A model generated the notes under the pieces. The model made no database searches and was not told where the DNA came from. It was given only the letters and a program-made list of their open reading frames with translations. This document shows positions 30,611-63,603 of a stretch of 64,000 bases of DNA, in pieces. Positions within the stretch are counted from its first letter, which is position 1, and each line of letters starts with the position of its first letter. The translations under genes and the position numbers were made by a program. Origin of the DNA: Candidatus Nanohalarchaeota archaeon (lineage in GTDB: Archaea > Nanohalarchaeota > Nanosalinia > Nanosalinales > Nanosalinaceae); assembly GCA_022729235.1 (NCBI GenBank), contig JALDAJ010000001.1:700442-764441 (forward strand), given 5' to 3'.

Positions 30611-30784
30611 GGAAACACTATTCTTCCGCTAGTTTAAAAGAAGAATTATGGCGGCGTTCCGGTAGTTCCGCGACTGGTTACCGCACGAACAGATGTTCGT
30701 GCTTTGAGCAGGTCAACTATTACGAGTAGACTGCGACGCTCGGTCGACACGCAATATAAGACTCCGGCGGGTGCCAAAGAGAGA
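30611..30784. other. Structured intergenic region upstream of orc1
   Basis: This 174-base gap between the DRG GTPase and orc1 holds the perfect hairpin GCACGAAC-AGAT-GTTCGTGC, flanked by TAGTT and AACTA arms that could extend it. On the minus strand CTTATATTG is a TATA-like box about 25 bases before the structured part, and TTCTTCTTTT follows it. It could be a small RNA gene, an origin element, or both. I find no clear origin recognition box. Confidence 0.35.
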
Positions 30785-39572: not shown

Positions 39573-39878
39573 ATGGCAGAAGACAAGGTGCTTTCCGAGG
39601 AAGAGATACAGGAACAACTGGAAGATATGAGTATATGGGGTTTGCAGTTTGAAAGACTTACAACTAGAGTTGAGTTCGAGAACTACAAAGAGGCAGTTTT
39701 CTTCGCAAACACAGTGTTCTCACTTGCAGAAGAGGCGTTCCACCATCCAGAGGTCAAGGTGGAGTACGGTGCCGTCGAGATCGATCTCTTCACGCACGAG
39801 GTCGAAGGTGTTACCGAGGCAGACATAGAGATGGCGAGGAAGATAGAGGAAAAGGCTCACGAGATAGACTGGGAGTAA
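39573..39878 (+). CDS. DCoH/pterin carbinolamine dehydratase-like protein, catalytic copy
   Basis: A 101-residue DCoH-fold protein. The fold runs through LSEEEIQEQLEDMSIWGLQFERLTTRVEFENYKEAVFFANTV. The active-site histidines appear to be kept: HHPEV at 57-58 and THEV at 75, followed by GVTEADIEMA. This family dehydrates 4a-hydroxy-tetrahydropterin or serves as a dimerisation cofactor. The native substrate in an archaeon without known pterin hydroxylases is unclear. ATG 39573 is chosen over the upstream frame. Confidence 0.82.
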   Translation: MAEDKVLSEEEIQEQLEDMSIWGLQFERLTTRVEFENYKEAVFFANTVFSLAEEAFHHPEVKVEYGAVEIDLFTHEVEGVTEADIEMARKIEEKAHEIDWE

Positions 39879-39930
39879 TATTCGGTGTTTCTAGGAAAGA
39901 GTCAAAAACGTGCTTTCTAAAGGACTATCT

Positions 39931-40227
39931 ATGACGGAGAAACTCTCTGAGGAAGAGGTATCGGAAGCTGTAGACGGACTGAGCATATGGGGTTTTGAGT
40001 CAGGCAGGTTTGCTACACGTGTAGAGTTCGAGAATTATGACGAAGTCGTCCTTTTCGCGAACACAGTGTTCAACATCGCCGATGAAGAAGGTAAGTATCC
40101 CGAGGTGCAGGCGAATGAGGATGCAGTCCTTATCGATTTATGGACTCCTGACGTAGGGATTACGAAAGCAGATGTTGAACTAGCGCGTAAGATCGAGGAG
40201 AAGCTGAGGAGTATGGACTGGGAATGA
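39931..40227 (+). CDS. DCoH-like paralog lacking the active-site histidines
   Basis: A 98-residue tandem paralog of the previous gene (SEAVDGLSIWGFESGRFATRVEFENYDEVVLFANTVFNIA). The HH pair becomes GK (DEEGKYPEVQ) and TH becomes TP (DLWTPDVGITKADVELA). The fold and helix positions are kept, so it is probably a non-catalytic partner or scaffold. The 50-base gap holds its own promoter-like GTCAAAAACG stretch. Confidence 0.8.
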   Translation: MTEKLSEEEVSEAVDGLSIWGFESGRFATRVEFENYDEVVLFANTVFNIADEEGKYPEVQANEDAVLIDLWTPDVGITKADVELARKIEEKLRSMDWE

Positions 40228-40262
40228 ATGTTTTTTTAAGGTGGAGACCTCTATAGTTTCCT

Positions 40263-40667
40263 ATGGCTGCGTCTACACAAGAAAGACAGTTATTTGAGAG
40301 GCTTGAGAGCTTTGACCCTGACGCCATGATTGAAAACGCTCTGATAGCCAAGGAGGGGCTGGAAAGACTGGAAGAGATCATAACCGTCGAGGTTCAGGAA
40401 ATCGAAGTCATTCAGAATGAGATAAGGGATTTATCTAGTAAGGCGATGAACGGAGGCCTTGAACCCGAAGAGCTTCAGGAATTAAAGGACTTGATGAGTC
40501 ACGAGGAGAAGTTCAAGTACGTCATGGAGAGTATCGAAGACTTTGCGGATTCTGAACAAGGCCAGGCTCTACGGGATTTACTGAATAATGCGGATAAGAT
40601 GGAGGAGCGCATGGACCGGTTAGAACGCGTGACTGCAGAGATAAGAGAGATGGAAACACAGGGTTAA
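40263..40667 (+). CDS. Coiled-coil protein
   Basis: A 134-residue acidic helical protein with heptad-like helices (AKEGLERLEEIITVEVQEIEVIQNEIRDL, NNADKMEERMDRLERVTAEIREM). There are no cysteines, no signal and no membrane segment. TTTTTTTAAG lies about 27 bases upstream. It ends four bases inside the convergent Nudix gene. Function is unknown. Confidence 0.6.
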   Translation: MAASTQERQLFERLESFDPDAMIENALIAKEGLERLEEIITVEVQEIEVIQNEIRDLSSKAMNGGLEPEELQELKDLMSHEEKFKYVMESIEDFADSEQGQALRDLLNNADKMEERMDRLERVTAEIREMETQG

Positions 40668-41122
40668 TCTAGAAGTTTGAGCTGGTTCCAGAGTAAGTCA
40701 AGAGAGTAACTCTCTCCTTCTTGATACTTTTCTAAGACCTTTTTTCTATTTTCATGTCTTAAATCGAGTTCCGGAATTTTCTCCTTCGGTATGAATTTAA
40801 CATCCAGTATCTCTCCTTTCCCAGGAGGTTCTTCAAATTTTTTCTCTACAGGTTCTGCAGTGAATCTAAAAGAAATGTTCTCAGTTCCGTCTCTCTGATT
40901 AAGCTCCTTGTAAACTCCAAGGAATCCTGTGATTTCGATTTTATAGCCGGTTTCTTCCAGTACCTCTCTTTTTACGCACTCAATAATTGACTCTCTATCC
41001 TCCCATCCTCCACCTGGAAAGTCCCATGTCTCGTGAACATGGTCTTTCCCTTCTTGAACCATCAGAATCTCTCCTTTATCGTTTTCAACAATTGCTCCTG
41101 CACTGGCGTAGAAAGATGACAT
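40664..41122 (-). CDS. Nudix hydrolase of the HEPN/MNT cassette
   Basis: A 152-residue Nudix enzyme. The Nudix box is GGGWEDRESIIECVKREVLEETGY, complete. Flanking strands are FYASAGAIVENDKGEILMV and FRFTAEPVEKKF. It begins directly at the HEPN stop, so it is the third gene of the cassette. It could hydrolyse an NTP or remove a nucleotide adduct made by the MNT enzyme. That link is a hypothesis; a house-cleaning role is equally possible. Confidence 0.85.
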   Translation of the reverse strand: MSSFYASAGAIVENDKGEILMVQEGKDHVHETWDFPGGGWEDRESIIECVKREVLEETGYKIEITGFLGVYKELNQRDGTENISFRFTAEPVEKKFEEPPGKGEILDVKFIPKEKIPELDLRHENRKKVLEKYQEGESYSLDLLWNQLKLLD

Positions 41123-41533
41123 TTATTTCTCCTTGATTATGTGTTTCCGCGCTAGTTTTATGATTTCTTCTGCTCTTTCTTTTTGGGTTGTTTCGCCTCT
41201 GTATCTTATATCGTTCCTAAGTTTTCTGAATTGGTTTATTTTGTTAGCTTCTGCTTCTGTCAGTATGTTGTTTTCTTTTGCGTATGCGATTATTGCTTCG
41301 TGGTTGTATGGTTTGTAGCCTTGCTCTGCCATGAACGATTGTAGGCGCTGTCTCAGGGCTTCGTAGGCGTCTTCAAACTTGAATGTTGCGTTTTCTTCTG
41401 TTAGTTCTGACTTTCCTATCTGTTGTTTGAACCGGTTTTCGGCCTGTTTCTTCAGTGATTTTGCCTCTGATTTTGATGACGATCCGGTTCTTACCTTTCC
41501 TTCTTTTAGGTATTCTTCGAAGCTTTTCATCAT
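41123..41533 (-). CDS. HEPN-domain protein, likely toxin partner
   Basis: A 136-residue all-helical HEPN-type protein. The central FKFEDAYEALRQRLQSFMAEQGYKPYNHEAI and the terminal FRKLRNDIRYRGE fit HEPN proteins paired with MNT enzymes. The motif R106-N-D-I-R-Y111 has Tyr where many HEPN RNases have His (R-x4-6-H). Catalysis may therefore be altered, although the Tyr could be the nucleotidylation site. It overlaps the MNT gene by four bases. Confidence 0.72.
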   Translation of the reverse strand: MMKSFEEYLKEGKVRTGSSSKSEAKSLKKQAENRFKQQIGKSELTEENATFKFEDAYEALRQRLQSFMAEQGYKPYNHEAIIAYAKENNILTEAEANKINQFRKLRNDIRYRGETTQKERAEEIIKLARKHIIKEK

Positions 41534-42051
41534 TCCATTTCCAGATAGCCATACAGTGTTATTCCATTGGCAAGTGTTTCGAGCATGTTCCTTGGTATTT
41601 CTTCTTTTTTGAACTCTGTTACTGATACTTCTCTATCCATTATCTCCTCTTCTGTGTCTGCAGTTTCTGTGGTTATGACTGCTATGTCTATATCGCTATC
41701 CTCCACATCCTCTCCCTTTGCGAAGCTCCCGAAAAGCACAATTGCTTCAGGATATGAGTATTTTTCTACTATTTGATCTATTAAAGAGCTTTGATAAAGT
41801 TTTTCCAGATTTATAACTTGTTTTAGTCTTAAAGCGTCTATATTATCTCTTTTAAAGGTTGTTAGTCTCTGATTTCCTCTCTTTCTTGTCTTGACTATGC
41901 CTTCTTCTTCGAACTTCCTGATTTTCTCCGAGATCCAGGGCTTTGACAGTCCGGTCTCTCTTGCGACCTCAGATATACTGAATTCTGTAGTTGGATGAGT
42001 ACAGAAGAATTTCAGCAGCTCGGTTTCAGCATCGTTAATTAAACTTAACAT
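41530..42051 (-). CDS. Winged-helix-fused MNT nucleotidyltransferase, likely antitoxin
   Basis: A 173-residue fusion. Residues 1-68 form a winged helix (FSISEVARETGLSKPWISEKIRKFEEEGIVKT). Residues 98-170 are a minimal nucleotidyltransferase with VLFGSFAKGEDVEDSDIDIAVI: the GS at 108-109 and D120/D122 are the catalytic pieces. MNT antitoxins nucleotidylate HEPN toxins. Here the same chain also carries a DNA-binding domain, so it can control its own promoter, where a perfect palindrome overlaps the start codon. AT-richer than its neighbours. Confidence 0.82.
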   Translation of the reverse strand: MLSLINDAETELLKFFCTHPTTEFSISEVARETGLSKPWISEKIRKFEEEGIVKTRKRGNQRLTTFKRDNIDALRLKQVINLEKLYQSSLIDQIVEKYSYPEAIVLFGSFAKGEDVEDSDIDIAVITTETADTEEEIMDREVSVTEFKKEEIPRNMLETLANGITLYGYLEME

Positions 42052-42078
42052 ATGTTAACTAATATTAATGAATGTTAA
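42045..42078 (-). promoter_or_regulatory. Candidate operator of the HEPN/MNT cassette
   Basis: TTAACATATGTTAA (42045-42058) is a perfect 14-bp palindrome covering the MNT start codon. A further TGTTAA follows at 42073-42078, after ACTAATATTAATGAA, giving same-face spacing of 20 bases. The winged helix of the first gene is the obvious candidate ligand. Beyond it to 42221 the gap is AT-rich with no gene. Confidence 0.5.
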
Positions 42079-42221
42079 TAAAAGTTTAGACGTGGATGGT
42101 AGAGAGGAGCATTTGTGAATTCAGATAATTATACTGGCTTTTCCTCTAGAACGCTTTTGGTTGTATCTCAGGATCTGTCAGCCAACATCTTTGTCTTAAG
42201 AAAAGAAAGGATGTAAAAAAC

Positions 42222-42791
42222 TTACTCGAGAGCCCCGATTTCCTGGAGGTTCTCTTTCAGTCTTGAGATTCCTTCCTGTACGTCGTCGTAGGTTCTGCCT
42301 CCTGTGCAGACTATGCGTCCTGAGGAGAACAGCAGGAACACTACTTTAGGATCGTCGAGCCTGTATACGAGTCCTGGGAACTGTTCCGGTTCGTACTCTG
42401 TACCGACGAGTTCGAAAGCTATCCTGTTCAGGTTAAGAGTCTGCCCTAGTTCCGACGAAGCTACCATGTTCTGGACAGTTATGTCCGGCTTGGTCTCGAT
42501 ATCTACTTCTGCTTCCCGCAGTTCGTCGATGATCTTGTGTACTGCGTCCTTTGCCATCTCCGGGCTCTGTGTTCCGGTACAGACGACCTTTCCGGAGCCG
42601 AAAATCAGTGCTGCGGCTTTCGGTTCTTTCAGTCTGTATACGAGTCCTGGGAACTGCTCTGGTTCGTATTCTGTGTTTTCGAGGTAGATTGCGATTCTGT
42701 CGAGAGGCATCCTCCGGTCGAGTGTTGTGGAGGCAACGACGTTCTCAATTTTGATGTTTTCATCTTTTTTGATCTCGTGTTCTTGGGCCAT
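42222..42791 (-). CDS. tbp: TATA-binding protein
   Basis: A 189-residue TBP with the two-fold repeated saddle. Repeat 1 is IKIENVVASTTLDRRMPLDRIAIYLENTEYEPEQFPGLVYRL and repeat 2 is VQNMVASSELGQTLNLNRIAFELVGTEYEPEQFPGLVYRLDDP. A short charged N-terminal tail (MAQEHEIKKDE) is present. AGGTGATT just before the ATG gives a ribosome-binding site, so this mRNA has a leader. TFB is encoded at 58.5 kb. Confidence 0.97.
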   Translation of the reverse strand: MAQEHEIKKDENIKIENVVASTTLDRRMPLDRIAIYLENTEYEPEQFPGLVYRLKEPKAAALIFGSGKVVCTGTQSPEMAKDAVHKIIDELREAEVDIETKPDITVQNMVASSELGQTLNLNRIAFELVGTEYEPEQFPGLVYRLDDPKVVFLLFSSGRIVCTGGRTYDDVQEGISRLKENLQEIGALE

Positions 42792-58547: not shown

Positions 58548-59669
58548 ATGTCCAAAAATGATACTATGTCAGAACAGGAGCACGTACCGCGTCGCGATTT
58601 CGACTCATACCAGGTTCCCGAAGACTGGGAAACTGAAGAAGATGAAGACGAAAACCTAGAGGAAGAAGCAGCACCAGAGGCTGAAGAGTCTGGAGAAGAG
58701 AAAACTGTCGCTGAAGGCGAAGGATATACTGTAGTCCAGGAAGAAGCCGAAGAAGGCGACATGGTTCTAACATGTCCCGAATGTGAATCACAGAGATTCG
58801 AGGAAGATTCCGCAGAAGGACAGCTTGTCTGTGTAGATTGTGGGGTAGTTGTCGATGAGAACCGGATCGATGAATCCGCAGAGTGGAGGGCGTTCAACGA
58901 GGAAGAGCGTGAGAAGAAGGCTCGCGCCGGACAGCCTCTTACATACACGAAACACGACATGGGAGTATCGACCGAGATCGGTAAAGGTTCTGGAGAGCTT
59001 TACAAGGTTTCTGGTAATAAAAGAGCCCAGTACTACAGGCTGAGGAAATGGCACAAGCGCCTGACAAAGTCCAAGGACCGCAACCTCGGGTTCGCTCTAT
59101 CCGAACTCAACTCGATGGTGTCCAACCTCAACCTTCCCGAATCAGTCCACGAAGAAGTCGCCCGACTATACGAGAAAGCGGTCGACAAGGGACTGGTGAG
59201 AGGACGTTCCATGGAGTCCATCATCTCCGCGCTACTCTACATCGTCGCGAGAAAACAGGGGACTCCAAGGACTCTTGACGAGATCTCCGAGGCTTCAGGC
59301 ATCGAGAAGAGAGAGATCGGTAGAGCATACCGTTACGTTGCGCGTGAACTCGGACTCAGAATCCTACCGGCGAAGCCGCAGGACTACGTACCGCGTTTCG
59401 CTGGAAAACTCCAGCTATCAGGAGAAGTCCAGGCAAGAGCGCGTCAAATTCTCAAGGAAGCAAGAGAAAAAGACCTTCTGTCCGGTAAAGGACCGACAGG
59501 TCTCGCAGCCGCCGCGCTCTACATCGCCGCAGTACTCGAAGGCGAGAAGAGAACGCAGAGAGAAGTAGCAGACGTAGTCGGAGTCACCGAGGTCACGATC
59601 AGGAACCGCTACAAAGAACTTGCGGAGAAACTCGGCCTCGAAGAAGAGCTGGAAGAGAAGTCGAATTGA
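58548..59669 (+). CDS. tfb: Transcription initiation factor B
   Basis: A 373-residue TFB. An unusually long acidic N-terminal extension (about 1-70, DWETEEDEDENLEEEAAPEAEES) precedes the zinc ribbon, Cys 76, 79, 95 and 98 (CPEC...CVDC). The B-finger follows (VDENRIDESAEWRAFNEEE), then two cyclin repeats ending in the helix-turn-helix TQREVADVVGVTEVTIRNRYKELAEKLG that reads the BRE. ATATTTAAATG at 58488 and GGGGGAGGG about 12 bases before the ATG indicate a leadered mRNA. The last 81 bases are duplicated downstream. Confidence 0.96.
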   Translation: MSKNDTMSEQEHVPRRDFDSYQVPEDWETEEDEDENLEEEAAPEAEESGEEKTVAEGEGYTVVQEEAEEGDMVLTCPECESQRFEEDSAEGQLVCVDCGVVVDENRIDESAEWRAFNEEEREKKARAGQPLTYTKHDMGVSTEIGKGSGELYKVSGNKRAQYYRLRKWHKRLTKSKDRNLGFALSELNSMVSNLNLPESVHEEVARLYEKAVDKGLVRGRSMESIISALLYIVARKQGTPRTLDEISEASGIEKREIGRAYRYVARELGLRILPAKPQDYVPRFAGKLQLSGEVQARARQILKEAREKDLLSGKGPTGLAAAALYIAAVLEGEKRTQREVADVVGVTEVTIRNRYKELAEKLGLEEELEEKSN

Positions 59670-60008
59670 TCGGCTTTTCATATTTCCTTCTATTTATTTT
59701 TCTTCTACCTTCAGATTTTGACGTCAAGCAAGTTTTTTGACCGGTGATTAAAGCCGGTAAACGGTTACAGTTTAGCGACTTAGATTGGCAGGCGTAATCA
59801 GGAAGTCTGGCGTTCGTGAAGAAGACGTAAACGCTGGAGCAGAGTTCTATGAAAGACTCGTGAAAGGGTACAGGAGCTGTTTGCAGAGATGTAGAAAGAG
59901 CTGAAGGCAACGGACGAAAGACAGCGATGTTTATGTCTTAAACGTCTCTCGCTTTGACTGGCAGTTTTCCCAATTTATTTCTTTTCTTTTTCTATTCTCT
60001 CAAGAGTC
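59670..60008. other. Gene-poor left part of the element
   Basis: The 339 bases after tfb start AT-rich (TTTATTTTTCTTCTACC), a possible terminator. A frame at about 59783-59902 reads VIRKSGVREEDVNAGAEFYE, then RLVKGYRSCLQRCRKS and a stop, without a clear start or promoter. It could be a decayed small gene. Nothing else is recognisable. Confidence 0.35.
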
Positions 60009-61178
60009 CTATGTCAATTGCGATAGGCGCCATAATTGAGCTAAAATGATTAAAATACTTGATATGATGAATAATGCCTTTAAAGACTTGATGACAAAGT
60101 TTTTCGACCTTATAATTTTATCCTCGGAGCTTGGTAGTTCTATCTTGTATTTTGGATAGACTTCTTCCGATCCAGAAAGTTTGAAGTTGTAAGATGGATT
60201 CACTTTTTCTCCGTTAACGATTATGGCTGAATTCTGTAATTTGTATATTTTTGGCCATTTTTGGGCTCTATTGATATAGCTTATTCTATCTTTTGTCTTA
60301 TCACTTATTCTAAAGTCCTCATCTAAGCAGTCTAAGGCCTCTATCAGTGCGGTTTCTTCTATTCTACACAAATGACTCTCTTCATCAAGCTCAATTATTA
60401 ATTTTTTAGGCTTTTCTTCAGAAAGGTCGCTAGCTTTGTTGGGATATACTCTGTCAGGATAAAGATGTTCATGTCCTCTGAAGTAGGGTGCGGAGTCTTC
60501 GTACCCACAGTTTTCGCAGGTAAAATCCCATCCTTTTGTGATTATTTCGTTGCTGTTGCATACTGGACAGGTGTATTCTTCATCAGGATTGTCTTCAGGG
60601 TTGTACAGATTCTCATAATCAATCTCCTGCGAGGGTTTTTTATCAAACATTTTAAAATCGTGTTTGTGGTAAAAGTATGCGGGTAAATACGAGTAACCCT
60701 GATATGGTGATCTCAATTCCTCCAGATTATCAGATGAGAAAAGATGCGGTCTCTTTATTTCCTCATCTTTACTCCAGAAAAATAGATTAGAACGTTCTTC
60801 GTCCACTTTATCAAGTCCTGTTTCCGTTATATTGTACAGTCTGGCGCTTACAGATTCGTCGCTCCGGCTTACTTCTAAAAGTCTAGAAGCGGCATCTGCG
60901 AGTATTGAGAAGTCTTTAGGATTTTTCTGAGGGCAGGGCATCTTTTCTACATATTTATTTCCAATGAATACTCTGTTGTCGCCGATAAACTCGCCTACAA
61001 GCTTATCTTTATCTACTTCTATATCGTCCTCTTGGACATCAAAAAGTTTAGCTACTCTTTCCAGACGTTTATCTTCTTTTTCTTGGTTTTCATCTCTTAA
61101 AATGATAATTTCTTTGTTTATTTGTTTCAGGGCAGCTTCTGGATTTTCTGATTCGATAAGGTAATACTCTATTGCCAC
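60009..61178 (-). CDS. AT-rich cargo gene: zinc-ribbon protein with C-terminal membrane anchor
   Basis: A 389-residue protein of unknown family. The N terminus is helical and charged (EAALKQINKEIIILRDENQEKEDKRLERVAKLF). A zinc ribbon CPVC...CENCGYED lies near residues 210-235, followed by a beta-rich region (KKLIIELDEESHLCRIEETALIEAL). One C-terminal helix (SLKALFIISSILIILAQLW) anchors it with the bulk in the cytoplasm. Codon choice is AT-rich (AAA, ATA, TTT, AGA) and Lys/Ile content is well above its neighbours. It lies between the two tfb-end repeats, so it looks like element cargo. Confidence 0.75.
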   Translation of the reverse strand: MAIEYYLIESENPEAALKQINKEIIILRDENQEKEDKRLERVAKLFDVQEDDIEVDKDKLVGEFIGDNRVFIGNKYVEKMPCPQKNPKDFSILADAASRLLEVSRSDESVSARLYNITETGLDKVDEERSNLFFWSKDEEIKRPHLFSSDNLEELRSPYQGYSYLPAYFYHKHDFKMFDKKPSQEIDYENLYNPEDNPDEEYTCPVCNSNEIITKGWDFTCENCGYEDSAPYFRGHEHLYPDRVYPNKASDLSEEKPKKLIIELDEESHLCRIEETALIEALDCLDEDFRISDKTKDRISYINRAQKWPKIYKLQNSAIIVNGEKVNPSYNFKLSGSEEVYPKYKIELPSSEDKIIRSKNFVIKSLKALFIISSILIILAQLWRLSQLT

Positions 61179-61234
61179 AATAGCAATTTGAAGGTGCTTA
61201 AATGTTAAATTTATTCAGCGTTTATAGCTGAGGA

Positions 61235-61315
61235 GAGGTCACAATCAGGAACCGCTACAAAGAACTTGCGGAGAAACTCGGCCTCGAAGAAGAGCTGGAA
61301 GAGAAATCCAACTAA
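61235..61315 (+). pseudogene. Detached 3' end of tfb
   Basis: Encodes in frame the last 26 residues of TFB (VTIRNRYKELAEKLG...EEKSN and stop) with five synonymous differences from the intact gene. It has no start or upstream coding sequence. It is either the original tfb end displaced by integration or the far attachment site. Confidence 0.8.
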
Positions 61316-61344
61316 CGCGTGGTTACGCTCGAGCGGGACGCAAG

Positions 61345-61383
61345 AAGCCATTCAACTGAATGGCTTTCGCCGCTAACGCGGCG
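61345..61383 (+). terminator. Strong double hairpin before a T-rich stretch
   Basis: AAGCCATTCA-AC-TGAATGGCTT (10-bp stem, 61345-61366) is directly followed by CGCCGC-TAAC-GCGGCG (61368-61383) and then TTATTTCTCTATTTTTATATTG. In plus orientation this resembles a termination signal, placed just after the detached tfb end, as if it were the old tfb terminator. The 175 bases that follow to 61558 are AT-rich with no gene. Confidence 0.45.
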
Positions 61384-61558
61384 CACTTATTTCTCTATTT
61401 TTATATTGTTTATCTGAGAATGTCTCTAGATTTCGGTTCAAAGCTCGAGTCCTGCCGATTTTATGTTTCCACATTTCTAAGGAGTTTGGGAGATGCCAAA
61501 GAAGTGCGAATTATTCTTTACCAGAGCGTAATAAAATTTTATTTTTAGATTTGACTCT

Positions 61559-62656
61559 ATGGGTTCGGCAAAAACAGAATCACAAAAAGAAATTTCGGCT
61601 GAAGAAATAGCCGATATAGACAGTTTGGGAGATTTAAGAGATTTGACAAATGAAGAATGTATTGAGGCTGCTTATTCTAAAGCCAAAGAGGTTTGGTGGG
61701 AAGATAAATTTAGTCCTCCAGACACTGAAACTGAGAGTCTGCCAGGAGAATCTGTTGAGATCGAGGGAACTAATTATGAAATACATCCTGTTGACCATGG
61801 TCTGAATGCGCCATTAATGAAGCCAGGAAGTGAAATTGTAGAATCGGTTCAAGGAGAAGTAGAGGATGTTCTGAGTGATAATGGCGAAGTATACATTGAA
61901 CAAGACTTGAAGGGACAATTTGACTTGGAAAGCTTTGATGTCACAGAAATCGATGATAGGTCTTGGGCCGATAACCAGTTTGACGAATATAAGGAGATAG
62001 ATGGGCTAATTGGGCAATCTAAAACGCTGGGTAAAGTGTGCTTAGCCGTACCTCTTATAGCAGGAATCAAAGGTTATGAGGCGCTAACAGGAAACCGAGT
62101 GTTTGATGAAGAAGGTTATAACGGCATCTATGCCAGAGAAGATATTGGCGAACTGGAAGTTTTGAAAGCAGATATGGAGGCAAGATTCCTGCCAACTGAT
62201 TTAGAAGAAGAATACCTTTGGGAAACAGACTCTGAGAAAGCTATTAACTTAATTGAACGCTCTAATAGAATGGCAGATTACATATTTAATGTATCGGACT
62301 CCGAAGAGGTACGTGCTATTGTAGGAGGAGCTCACTATCCCTTTGTCATGGATAGACTTCAGGAATACAAGGAGGGAGAAAGAAATCAAGAGATTGAGTT
62401 CGATATTTACACAGTGAATTTGGAGCCGGAAAGACCTGCAGCAATAAGCTTGGCTTCAGGCCTAATATCAGCTTACTTTTTATCACAGGGAGAGATGAGA
62501 GCTGCCAAGGCTTTTGGAGGAATTTCGGCTCTTTCAGGTACGATGGCCGGAGTCTCATACTGGGCTTCCTCAACGCTGAAGACCGTGACAAATGATATGC
62601 AGAACTCTCAAGTACCGGATTCACATTTATACGCCGAAGGTTATATCGAGGAGTAA
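61559..62656 (+). CDS. Divergent TraB/PrgY-like membrane protein
   Basis: A 365-residue acidic protein. The layout recalls the TraB/GumN superfamily. It has an early strand with His (YEIHPVDHGLN), a helix and strand ending in Glu (EIVESVQGEVEDVLSDNGEVYIEQ), and a late ERSNRMADYIF...VRAIVGGAHYPFVMDRLQEY, close to the TraB 'ER..MA...VGAGH' pattern. Two hydrophobic C-terminal stretches (AAISLASGLISAYFLS and AFGGISALSGTMAGVSYWA) follow. The DNA is AT-richer than the rest of the window. The family call is tentative. Confidence 0.55.
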   Translation: MGSAKTESQKEISAEEIADIDSLGDLRDLTNEECIEAAYSKAKEVWWEDKFSPPDTETESLPGESVEIEGTNYEIHPVDHGLNAPLMKPGSEIVESVQGEVEDVLSDNGEVYIEQDLKGQFDLESFDVTEIDDRSWADNQFDEYKEIDGLIGQSKTLGKVCLAVPLIAGIKGYEALTGNRVFDEEGYNGIYAREDIGELEVLKADMEARFLPTDLEEEYLWETDSEKAINLIERSNRMADYIFNVSDSEEVRAIVGGAHYPFVMDRLQEYKEGERNQEIEFDIYTVNLEPERPAAISLASGLISAYFLSQGEMRAAKAFGGISALSGTMAGVSYWASSTLKTVTNDMQNSQVPDSHLYAEGYIEE

Positions 62657-62715: not shown

Positions 62716-63024
62716 TCATTCTTCTCCGTGCAGCCTATGTTTCTGCGGGTCGTAGATGTAGTGTTCCCAGAGTTTCTGGAGCTGTGGTAGTGTCATGGTT
62801 GCGAGTACGAAGGCGACCGCGGGGACTACAGAGTTGATGAACGGGTCTGGTAGATCGGCGGCGAAGAAGTAGATTACGATCACAATGTATGTCAGGACTG
62901 TTATAGCTATTCTTCGTTCCCAGCTGATTTCCCATGCCTTGTCTTTCTCCGCTTTCTTGTTTCTGTCCTTTATCTGTTCTATTTCTTCTTCAAGTCCGTC
63001 AACGCGTTTTTCTAAATCGGCCAT
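62716..63024 (-). CDS. Coiled-coil two-helix membrane protein
   Basis: A 102-residue protein. An N-terminal coiled coil (DLEKRVDGLEEEIEQIKDRNKKAEKDKAWEISWERR) is followed by two transmembrane helices (IAITVLTYIVIVIYFFAADL and VVPAVAFVLATMTLPQLQ) and the end LWEHYIYDPQKH. This architecture is seen in small membrane proteins of many prokaryotes; function is unknown. Composition returns to the genome norm here. Confidence 0.65.
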   Translation of the reverse strand: MADLEKRVDGLEEEIEQIKDRNKKAEKDKAWEISWERRIAITVLTYIVIVIYFFAADLPDPFINSVVPAVAFVLATMTLPQLQKLWEHYIYDPQKHRLHGEE

Positions 63025-63084
63025 ATTAATTTCTGTTGAACTTCTCTCTAATAATATTTTTTAGTGGTTTGTCCTGTTACGGGG

Positions 63085-63603
63085 TCATTCTGTGTTTTTC
63101 GTGTATGTAGTGAAGCTGGTATCTTCGCGCAGGTAGAAGTCTATGGTTCTCTTGAGTTCGTGGTAGGAGATGTTTCTCTGTGAGACATATGTCTCGGTTC
63201 TGTCCTGGATCAGGTGGTTCTGTTTCAGGAAGTCCCAGTGGTCGATCCTGTCTGAGAGGTAGTTGTCTCCTATTTCTTCTAGTTTATCCTTGACTGGTCT
63301 CTCCAAGTATCTCTCTATAAGGTCAGGTTCTTCCTCGATATCGACTTCTATGAAAAGTCTTTGCTCGCAGTACGAACCGCCTACCTGGACAAGGTGTTTG
63401 ATCCTGACTTCTTCCAGATTTTCGTATTCCGGGAGGTCTTGCAGATTGAATCGTCCCTCCAACCTTTCAAGAAGCTCTCTGTAATCTACGTCCTCTGCTT
63501 CATAGCTGCCAGGAAATACTTCCTCTAGGTCGGTCTCTAGATTTGCTGCCGGGTTACGTATGTATATATCTGAGTCTTTGCGAAAACCTCGTGAATGCTT
63601 CAT
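63085..63603 (-). CDS. Hypothetical protein
   Basis: A 172-residue soluble, charged protein (MKHSRGFRKDSDIYIRNPAANLETDLEEVFPGSYEAEDVDYRELLERLEGRF...). The centre has strand patterns (VRIKHLVQVGGSYCEQRLFIEVDIEEEPDLIERYL), and the end is helical (SQRNISYHELKRTIDFYLRED). No family is recognised. Confidence 0.55.
   Translation of the reverse strand: MKHSRGFRKDSDIYIRNPAANLETDLEEVFPGSYEAEDVDYRELLERLEGRFNLQDLPEYENLEEVRIKHLVQVGGSYCEQRLFIEVDIEEEPDLIERYLERPVKDKLEEIGDNYLSDRIDHWDFLKQNHLIQDRTETYVSQRNISYHELKRTIDFYLREDTSFTTYTKNTE

What the first reader, a model, noticed from the sequence alone, without database searches (positions are those of the whole stretch)
59589..61315. 81-bp duplication of the tfb 3' end flanks an AT-rich segment
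The two copies differ at five positions and every change is silent: ACG/ACA, AAG/AAA, TCG/TCC, AAT/AAC and TGA/TAA. Random decay would not do this, so both copies have served as a functional gene end. Site-specific integrating elements often carry the end of their target gene so the target stays intact. An essential transcription factor as the target, with a single membrane-anchored cargo gene and no integrase, would be an unusual minimal element.
Basis: partly seen in the sequence, partly recalled or inferred. Interest (0 to 1): 0.88.

Follow-up and report, generated by a model that had tools for sequence, protein, structure and literature searches.

The report
Gene-end scar beside mobile hairpin
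In a tiny salt-loving archaeon, the end of an essential transcription-factor gene was copied when foreign DNA inserted beside it without breaking it, and the leftover copy touches a small hairpin sequence that turns out to be scattered through tRNA genes and gene ends across this group of archaea and is in no RNA catalogue searched.

Summary
In detail: window 59589-59669 and 61235-61315 share 76/81 bases, five differences, all silent (random chance 0.0003-0.0014). The 1,565 bp between is AT-rich (37.7% GC) and holds a decayed small gene and an orphan 389-aa membrane-anchored gene, no integrase. The window lies in a 1.03-Mb genome of a family that also holds Nanohaloarchaea SG9. The copy is not from a tfb paralog. 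In family members the tfb-trm1 gap holds unrelated genes or none, but only this genome has the repeat. Best reading: a second tfb allele's end arrived with the segment, keeping tfb intact; copy 2 is the older, native end. Whether a trans-acting recombinase or homologous recombination did it is open. New: copy 2's stop codon abuts a covarying hairpin motif (R1, TGGTTACGCTCG-N6-ACGCAA). R1 is nearly confined to DPANN in a GTDB scan (38 of 40 hits), absent from Rfam, occurs as tRNA introns or right at tRNA and protein-gene ends, and outside introns is flanked by duplicated gene ends in 15 of 39 cases (control 2.9%), sometimes in tandem. tfb therefore looks like a re-used insertion site of a DPANN-wide mobile hairpin system. 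The 'minimal element' reading is only partly supported.

The parts
58554..59669 (+). tfb, transcription initiation factor B (371 aa from this start), intact; its 3' end is copy 1
   Evidence: Pfam TFIIB 4.8e-47 and Zn_Ribbon_TF 2.7e-15; 85-89% identical orthologs throughout the family
59589..59669 (+). copy 1 of the tfb 3' end, in use today; ends AAG TCG AAT TGA
59598..59659 (+). 62-nt perfect core shared with 61244-61305; any crossover that joined the two alleles must lie here
59670..61234 (.). AT-rich inserted segment, 1565 bp, 37.7% GC
59786..59916 (+). decayed copy of a small 55-aa gene that is intact at G000:C1 ~880.9 kb; frameshifted
   Evidence: blastn 63% over 139 nt, E 2e-9; no Pfam family for the intact gene
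60009..61178 (-). orphan cargo gene, 389 aa, CxxC-type zinc ribbon about residues 201-230, C-terminal transmembrane helix
   Evidence: no relative in 60 genomes beyond a 33-aa zinc-ribbon match, GTDB contigs, IMG/VR, phages or plasmids; only weak zinc-ribbon Pfam hits; single-sequence AlphaFold pLDDT 35, only the C-terminal helix confident
61235..61315 (+). copy 2 of the tfb 3' end, now a remnant; ends AAA TCC AAC TAA
   Evidence: closer than or equal to copy 1 to the tfb end of every relative
61314..61343 (+). R1 motif: stem CGC/GCG, loop TGGTTACGCTCG, then ACGCAA
   Evidence: R1 model 44.9 bits, E 8e-10 in the genome search, 2.6e-10 over the tfb loci
61316..61385 (+). R1 unit: motif plus two following hairpins; begins right at the stop codon of copy 2
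   Evidence: fold -32.9 kcal/mol
61559..62656 (+). AT-rich 365-aa gene behind the R1 unit, part of the variable tfb-trm1 gap
   Evidence: no Pfam hit; relatives at 34% and 27% identity in 2 of 30 genomes
62716..63603 (-). two further small genes (102 and 172 aa) of the gap; trm1 (PF02005) and the A-type ATPase genes follow beyond the window end

Best explanation
The 81-bp repeat is the scar of a gene-end-preserving insertion at the tfb 3' end, at a site used at least twice. First, an R1 hairpin unit came to sit directly behind the stop codon of tfb (today's copy 2 + R1 + the 365-aa gene). Later a 1.65-kb DNA that carried another allele of the tfb end (today's copy 1), its T-rich flank, a decayed gene and the 389-aa gene joined in through the 62-bp perfect core. 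tfb stayed intact with the new end, and the old end was pushed downstream as a remnant. Shown: the repeat, its silent divergence, the foreign composition, the R1 motif, the variable gap in relatives. Inferred: order of events, a circular or att-type intermediate, and a recombinase acting in trans (the integrase at C1:862694, just downstream of an R1-containing tRNA-Thr, is a candidate only).
For: Silent-only divergence, P 0.0003-0.0014. Copy 2 is nearer than or equal to copy 1 to every relative and uses tfb's preferred codons (TCC 10: TCG 2, AAC 7: AAT 2), so copy 1's tail is the newcomer. Insert GC is an outlier. The tfb-trm1 gap carries unrelated genes in other genera, none in G017 and G011. 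G001's tfb contig ends at the tfb 3' end and overlaps the next contig by exactly 141 bp, as at a branch of an assembly graph with k=141 (inference). R1 elsewhere abuts tRNA or protein-gene ends with duplicated gene ends, with tandem re-use (L084, L117, L147) and with diverged but coding-conserved fragments (L071, L092, L227). Precedents: thaumarchaeal elements in 3'-distal regions of protein genes and tandem re-use of one site (PMC6563490); a 1.8-kb element between a tRNA fragment and an intron-gaining tRNA in Caldiarchaeum (PMC3293823).
Against: No recombinase, no second copy, no empty site in a sister strain, no free form. In other R1 insertions with a flanking duplication the second copy lies about 65-140 nt beyond the motif; here it lies 1.6 kb upstream and none downstream, so the R1 unit and the 1.6-kb segment may be unrelated events. 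In relatives the gap cargo shows no att-like repeat, so the variable gap could come from ordinary recombination of flanking core genes. tfb's preferred ACA is in copy 2, mildly against the assigned crossover polarity on the left side.
Confidence: 0.5

Rival explanations
1. Homologous recombination with an illegitimate second end: DNA from a related strain's tfb locus (tfb end + terminator + its own gap cargo) recombined at tfb by homology, and its far end joined to the recipient's tfb end by micro-homology (GAG), giving the repeat without any mobile element.
For: Explains allelic silent differences, absence of a recombinase, the host-type decayed gene, and a gap that turns over in nearly every genus. 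The left edge of the repeat is an arbitrary mid-gene point with a GAG at the junction.
Against: Needs a rare end-joining event exactly inside the same 81 bp; does not explain why R1 stands at the stop codon or why gene-end duplications recur next to R1 elsewhere.
Confidence: 0.33
2. RNA- or R1-driven duplication: the R1 unit moved together with the 81-bp tfb end (copy 2 + R1 is the mobile piece) and was inserted downstream of tfb; the 389-aa gene was already there.
For: Copy 2 abuts R1 as gene fragments abut R1 in L066/L106, L117, L119, L227. Copy 1 has a T-rich flank weakly similar to the relatives' tfb flanks.
Against: Copy 2, not copy 1, looks native by codon use and similarity to relatives; the flank behind the R1 unit is T-rich too and scores similarly.
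Confidence: 0.1
3. Simple local duplication of the tfb end followed by drift.
For: One genome only, short repeat.
Against: A non-coding copy would not keep only silent changes (P 0.0003-0.0014) and would not look more ancestral than the functional copy.
Confidence: 0.05
4. Assembly artefact joining two strains' tfb ends.
For: The two ends look like alleles of one species or of close species.
Against: Single-contig 1.03-Mb genome; the cargo frame is open; the same kind of structure occurs beside R1 in many independent assemblies.
Confidence: 0.03

Closest known systems
Tyrosine-recombinase or casposon elements integrated in 3'-distal regions of archaeal protein genes (Krupovic et al. 2019, PMC6563490)
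   Same: The target gene keeps an intact end supplied by the insert; direct repeat of the gene end at both sides; tandem re-use of one site is described there
   Different: tfb is not among the named protein-gene targets there; no integrase or Cas1; the repeat (81 bp) is longer than the 29-69 bp that paper quotes for crenarchaeal att sites; the segment is only 1.6 kb
Caldiarchaeum tRNA-Thr disruption element (Sugahara et al. 2012, PMC3293823)
   Same: A 1.8-kb piece lies between a gene fragment and the intact gene, together with gain of an intron; a mobile element is proposed as cause
   Different: [quoted passage not shown] here the target is a protein gene and nothing recurs but R1
Archaeal tRNA introns (bulge-helix-bulge)
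   Same: Many R1 copies are tRNA introns in the anticodon loop, others in the T-loop
   Different: R1 also sits outside genes, even antisense at tRNA 5' ends, so it is not only a splicing unit; it shares a fixed 18-base motif across tRNAs and phyla
Archaeal group I introns (PMC6125680)
   Same: Structured inserts in RNA genes, including those of DPANN
   Different: No Rfam group I match; the 39 introns of that paper are all in rRNA genes; R1 units flanked by gene-end duplications are about 70-140 nt

Membership tests
Site-specific integrative element with att in a gene 3' end | Direct repeat of the gene end flanking the insert, gene kept intact | tested here: met
Site-specific integrative element with att in a gene 3' end | Integrase or other recombinase encoded in the insert | tested here: not met
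   no PF00589 match in the segment; nearest integrases 79 and 102 kb away; cargo has no recombinase domain
Site-specific integrative element with att in a gene 3' end | Empty site in a close relative | tested here: inconclusive
   empty or differently filled tfb-trm1 gaps in other genera only; no same-genus genome held
Site-specific integrative element with att in a gene 3' end | Free circular form or copies on plasmids or viruses | tested here: inconclusive
   no match in phage, plasmid or IMG/VR collections; reads not available
R1 hairpin family (defined here) | Covarying stem around loop TGGTTACGCTCG, then ACGCAA | tested here: met
   92.5% of cells paired, covariation 0.775 against 0.232 shuffled; window copy 44.9 bits, but its fourth stem pair is G-A and it was one of the 33 sequences used to build the model
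R1 hairpin family (defined here) | Gene-end duplication directly on both sides of the unit (common outside introns) | tested here: not met
   copy 2 on the 5' side only; no copy within 140 nt downstream
Archaeal tRNA (BHB) intron | Flanked by exons that are joined by splicing | tested here: not met
   at tfb it stands after a stop codon with no exon pair; other R1 copies lie between tRNA halves; splicing itself not tested
Casposon | Cas1-type casposase, terminal inverted repeats | not tested
   the segment holds only the 389-aa gene, with no Cas1-like Pfam hit; terminal inverted repeats were not searched for specifically
tfb paralog remnant | Copy 2 resembles a second tfb gene better than this tfb | tested here: not met
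   copy 2 encodes the same amino acids as this tfb end; the other TFB genes of G000 match at 54% and 44%

The most novel reading that the evidence does not exclude
R1 units are a DPANN-wide class of very small mobile hairpin elements (about 70-140 nt, up to about 330 nt where they form dispersed structured repeats, no protein of their own) that insert at exact ends of tRNA and protein genes or inside tRNAs as introns, carry along pieces of their target gene, and can act as landing sites for further DNA such as the tfb cargo.
Probability: 0.35. Interest if true: 0.85.

Novelty: new variant of a known kind. Interest (0 to 1): 0.62.

Why it matters
tfb would be a new integration target: a core transcription factor whose last codons are exchanged with inserted DNA. 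More broadly, the hairpin behind copy 2 ties together three things usually studied apart in archaea: tRNA introns, gene-end integration scars and short dispersed repeats. Sugahara et al. proposed that mobile elements carry introns into tRNA genes; R1 gives a sequence tag with dozens of copies, some in near-identical tandem units, with which that proposal can be tested directly in DPANN archaea.

Tried and rejected
Search for the cargo protein in GTDB contigs, IMG/VR, phages, plasmids and 60 genomes: no relative. Degenerate tfb-end pattern in IMG/VR: none. R1 pattern in IMG/VR: none. Integrase near tfb in relatives: none. A second attR for the integrases beside R1-containing tRNA-Thr genes in G000 and G002: not found within the 20 kb read. 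R1 behind tfb in relatives (G018 looked similar by eye): rejected by the model. Similarity of the flanks behind copy 1 and behind the R1 unit to relatives' terminators: both marginal (5 and 2 of 200 shuffles), so not used. Single-sequence structure of the 389-aa protein: too poor for a fold search. Literature: no hit for the R1 sequence or for DPANN mobile tRNA introns in the library held. A first automatic classification of R1 contexts misread intron-containing tRNAs and was replaced.

Full report
Observation. The repeat is real and as described: 81 nt, 76 identical, five differences, all silent, start-to-start 1646. Five random changes would all be silent with P of 0.0003-0.0014. The right edge of both copies is the stop codon; the left edge is mid-gene. 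The differences sit at position 9 and in the last ten bases, leaving a 62-nt perfect core. The segment between is 37.7% GC against 48.6% for the window, and its gene has the lowest GC of 55.

Setting. The window is part of a 1,027,595-bp single-contig genome. Behind tfb the conserved neighbours are trm1 (PF02005) and genes that look like A-type ATPase subunits H and I (own reading of the sequences). The gap between tfb and trm1 is filled with unrelated genes in nearly every genus (one to seven open frames; a ZIP transporter, an HhH-GPD glycosylase and a GNAT enzyme among them) and is empty in G017 and G011. Only two genomes of one genus share a cargo gene (G008, G015). No relative has a repeat of its tfb end. 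In G001 the tfb contig ends nine bases or so before the end of the stop codon and overlaps the next contig by exactly 141 bases, which is what an assembler with k=141 leaves at a branch; I infer variation at the tfb end there too.

Cargo. The 389-aa gene has no relative in any collection searched, apart from a 33-residue match over its zinc ribbon. It has a CxxC zinc ribbon and a C-terminal membrane helix.

Which copy is native? For every relative copy 2 is at least as close as copy 1, and its last codons follow tfb's own preference (TCC 10: TCG 2; AAC 7: AAT 2). Copy 2 shows no sign of non-silent change although it is no longer used. So copy 2 was probably the working end until recently, and copy 1's tail came with the segment. 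The other TFB genes of the genome are too distant to be the source.

The R1 motif. The bases right after copy 2's TAA matched a tRNA intron elsewhere in the same genome (locus L003) and a tRNA region beside an integrase in G002. The shared motif, TGGTTACGCTCG-N6-ACGCAA, gave 40 exact hits in GTDB genomes, 38 of them in records titled Woesearchaeota, Nanoarchaeota, Nanohaloarchaea and similar or unnamed archaea, and none in IMG/VR. About 7 chance hits were expected by my estimate, and the two bacterial hits are taken as such. The four pairs around the loop covary strongly: 34 cells with both sides changed, score 0.775 against 0.232 shuffled and at most 0.107 when slid. No Rfam family matches it. 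A model finds it in 14 of 60 genomes of the relatives search, up to nine matches per genome, some of them weak, and in 26 of 147 genomes of the phylum around a woesearchaeal genome, up to 15 per genome.

Where R1 sits. Of 61 copies with enough flank, 17 are anticodon-loop tRNA introns and at least 5 lie in the T-loop. Five abut a mature tRNA end, three of these antisense at the 5' end, which speaks for insertion at the DNA level. Six stand just upstream of a tRNA. A duplication of the adjoining sequence spans 16 of 61: 1 of 22 intron copies and 15 of 39 others, against 14 of 480 random positions. Examples: a 45-bp protein-gene end with its stop codon (L066/L106), tRNA-Leu 5' end 16 bp (L129), tRNA 3' end 24 bp (L147), tRNA-Glu with its upstream region 48 bp in a tandem array (L117). 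In L071, L092 and L227 the gene fragment differs from the intact gene but keeps most of the coding sense, as at tfb. In G117 and G066 the motif is part of a dispersed structured repeat of roughly 250-330 nt. In G000 itself R1 occurs in tRNA-Thr(GGT), tRNA-Cys, at tfb, and in an interrupted form at window 30672-30755.

Synthesis. R1 marks places where DNA has inserted at gene ends while a copy of the end was left over. tfb copy 2 + R1 looks like such a place, except that its own downstream copy is missing. The later segment re-used the site: it brought copy 1 and the cargo. Tandem re-use of the same gene end is seen in L084, L117 and L147, and is known for tyrosine recombinases and casposons (PMC6563490). 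The closest precedent is the Caldiarchaeum tRNA-Thr locus, where a tRNA fragment lies 1.8 kb from an intron-containing copy and a mobile element is held responsible (PMC3293823).

What remains open. No recombinase is encoded in the segment. The integrase at C1:862694 starts about 0.2 kb behind an R1-containing tRNA-Thr, as does one in G002, but integrases favour tRNA genes anyway, so this is a lead and not evidence. Homologous recombination with one illegitimate end explains the tfb repeat alone nearly as well; it does not explain R1. I put a site-specific or R1-linked insertion at 0.5, homology-driven import at 0.33.

Novelty. Gene-end-preserving insertion is a known kind; tfb as target and the tie to R1 are new here as far as the library held shows. 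R1 itself may be a new class of mobile structured element; I could not find it in Rfam or in the papers searched, but subscription papers and preprints were not covered.

Noticed in passing
window 61314-61385; L066, L081, L084, L092, L105, L113, L117, L119, L129, L147, L207, L227: A DPANN-wide covarying hairpin motif (R1) as tRNA intron or at gene ends with duplicated gene ends; not in Rfam. Deserves its own study.
   Followed up: partly
window 30672-30755: An R1 unit whose loop is interrupted by about 60 nt; model match E 9.7e-4.
   Followed up: partly
G117 (L215-L222), G066 (L228-L231): R1 as part of dispersed, highly structured repeats of roughly 250-330 nt in woesearchaeal genomes, many at contig ends of MAGs.
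   Followed up: partly
L117, L084: Tandem arrays of R1 plus tRNA 5' fragment (in L117 with upstream sequence, 48 bp in all) in front of an intact tRNA-Glu and tRNA-Pro.
   Followed up: partly
tfb-trm1 gap in G001-G018: The interval between tfb and trm1 holds different genes in nearly every genus of the family (ZIP transporter, HhH-GPD glycosylase, GNAT and unknowns).
   Followed up: partly
window 39591-42674: Diverged internal repeats (285 bp at 65%; 58 bp at 84%) near two AT-rich genes (40664-41122, 41530-42051).
   Followed up: no
G001:C31 end and C48 start: Contigs overlap by exactly 141 bp at the tfb 3' end, suggesting a branch in the assembly graph, i.e. a variable sequence behind tfb in that population.
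   Followed up: no
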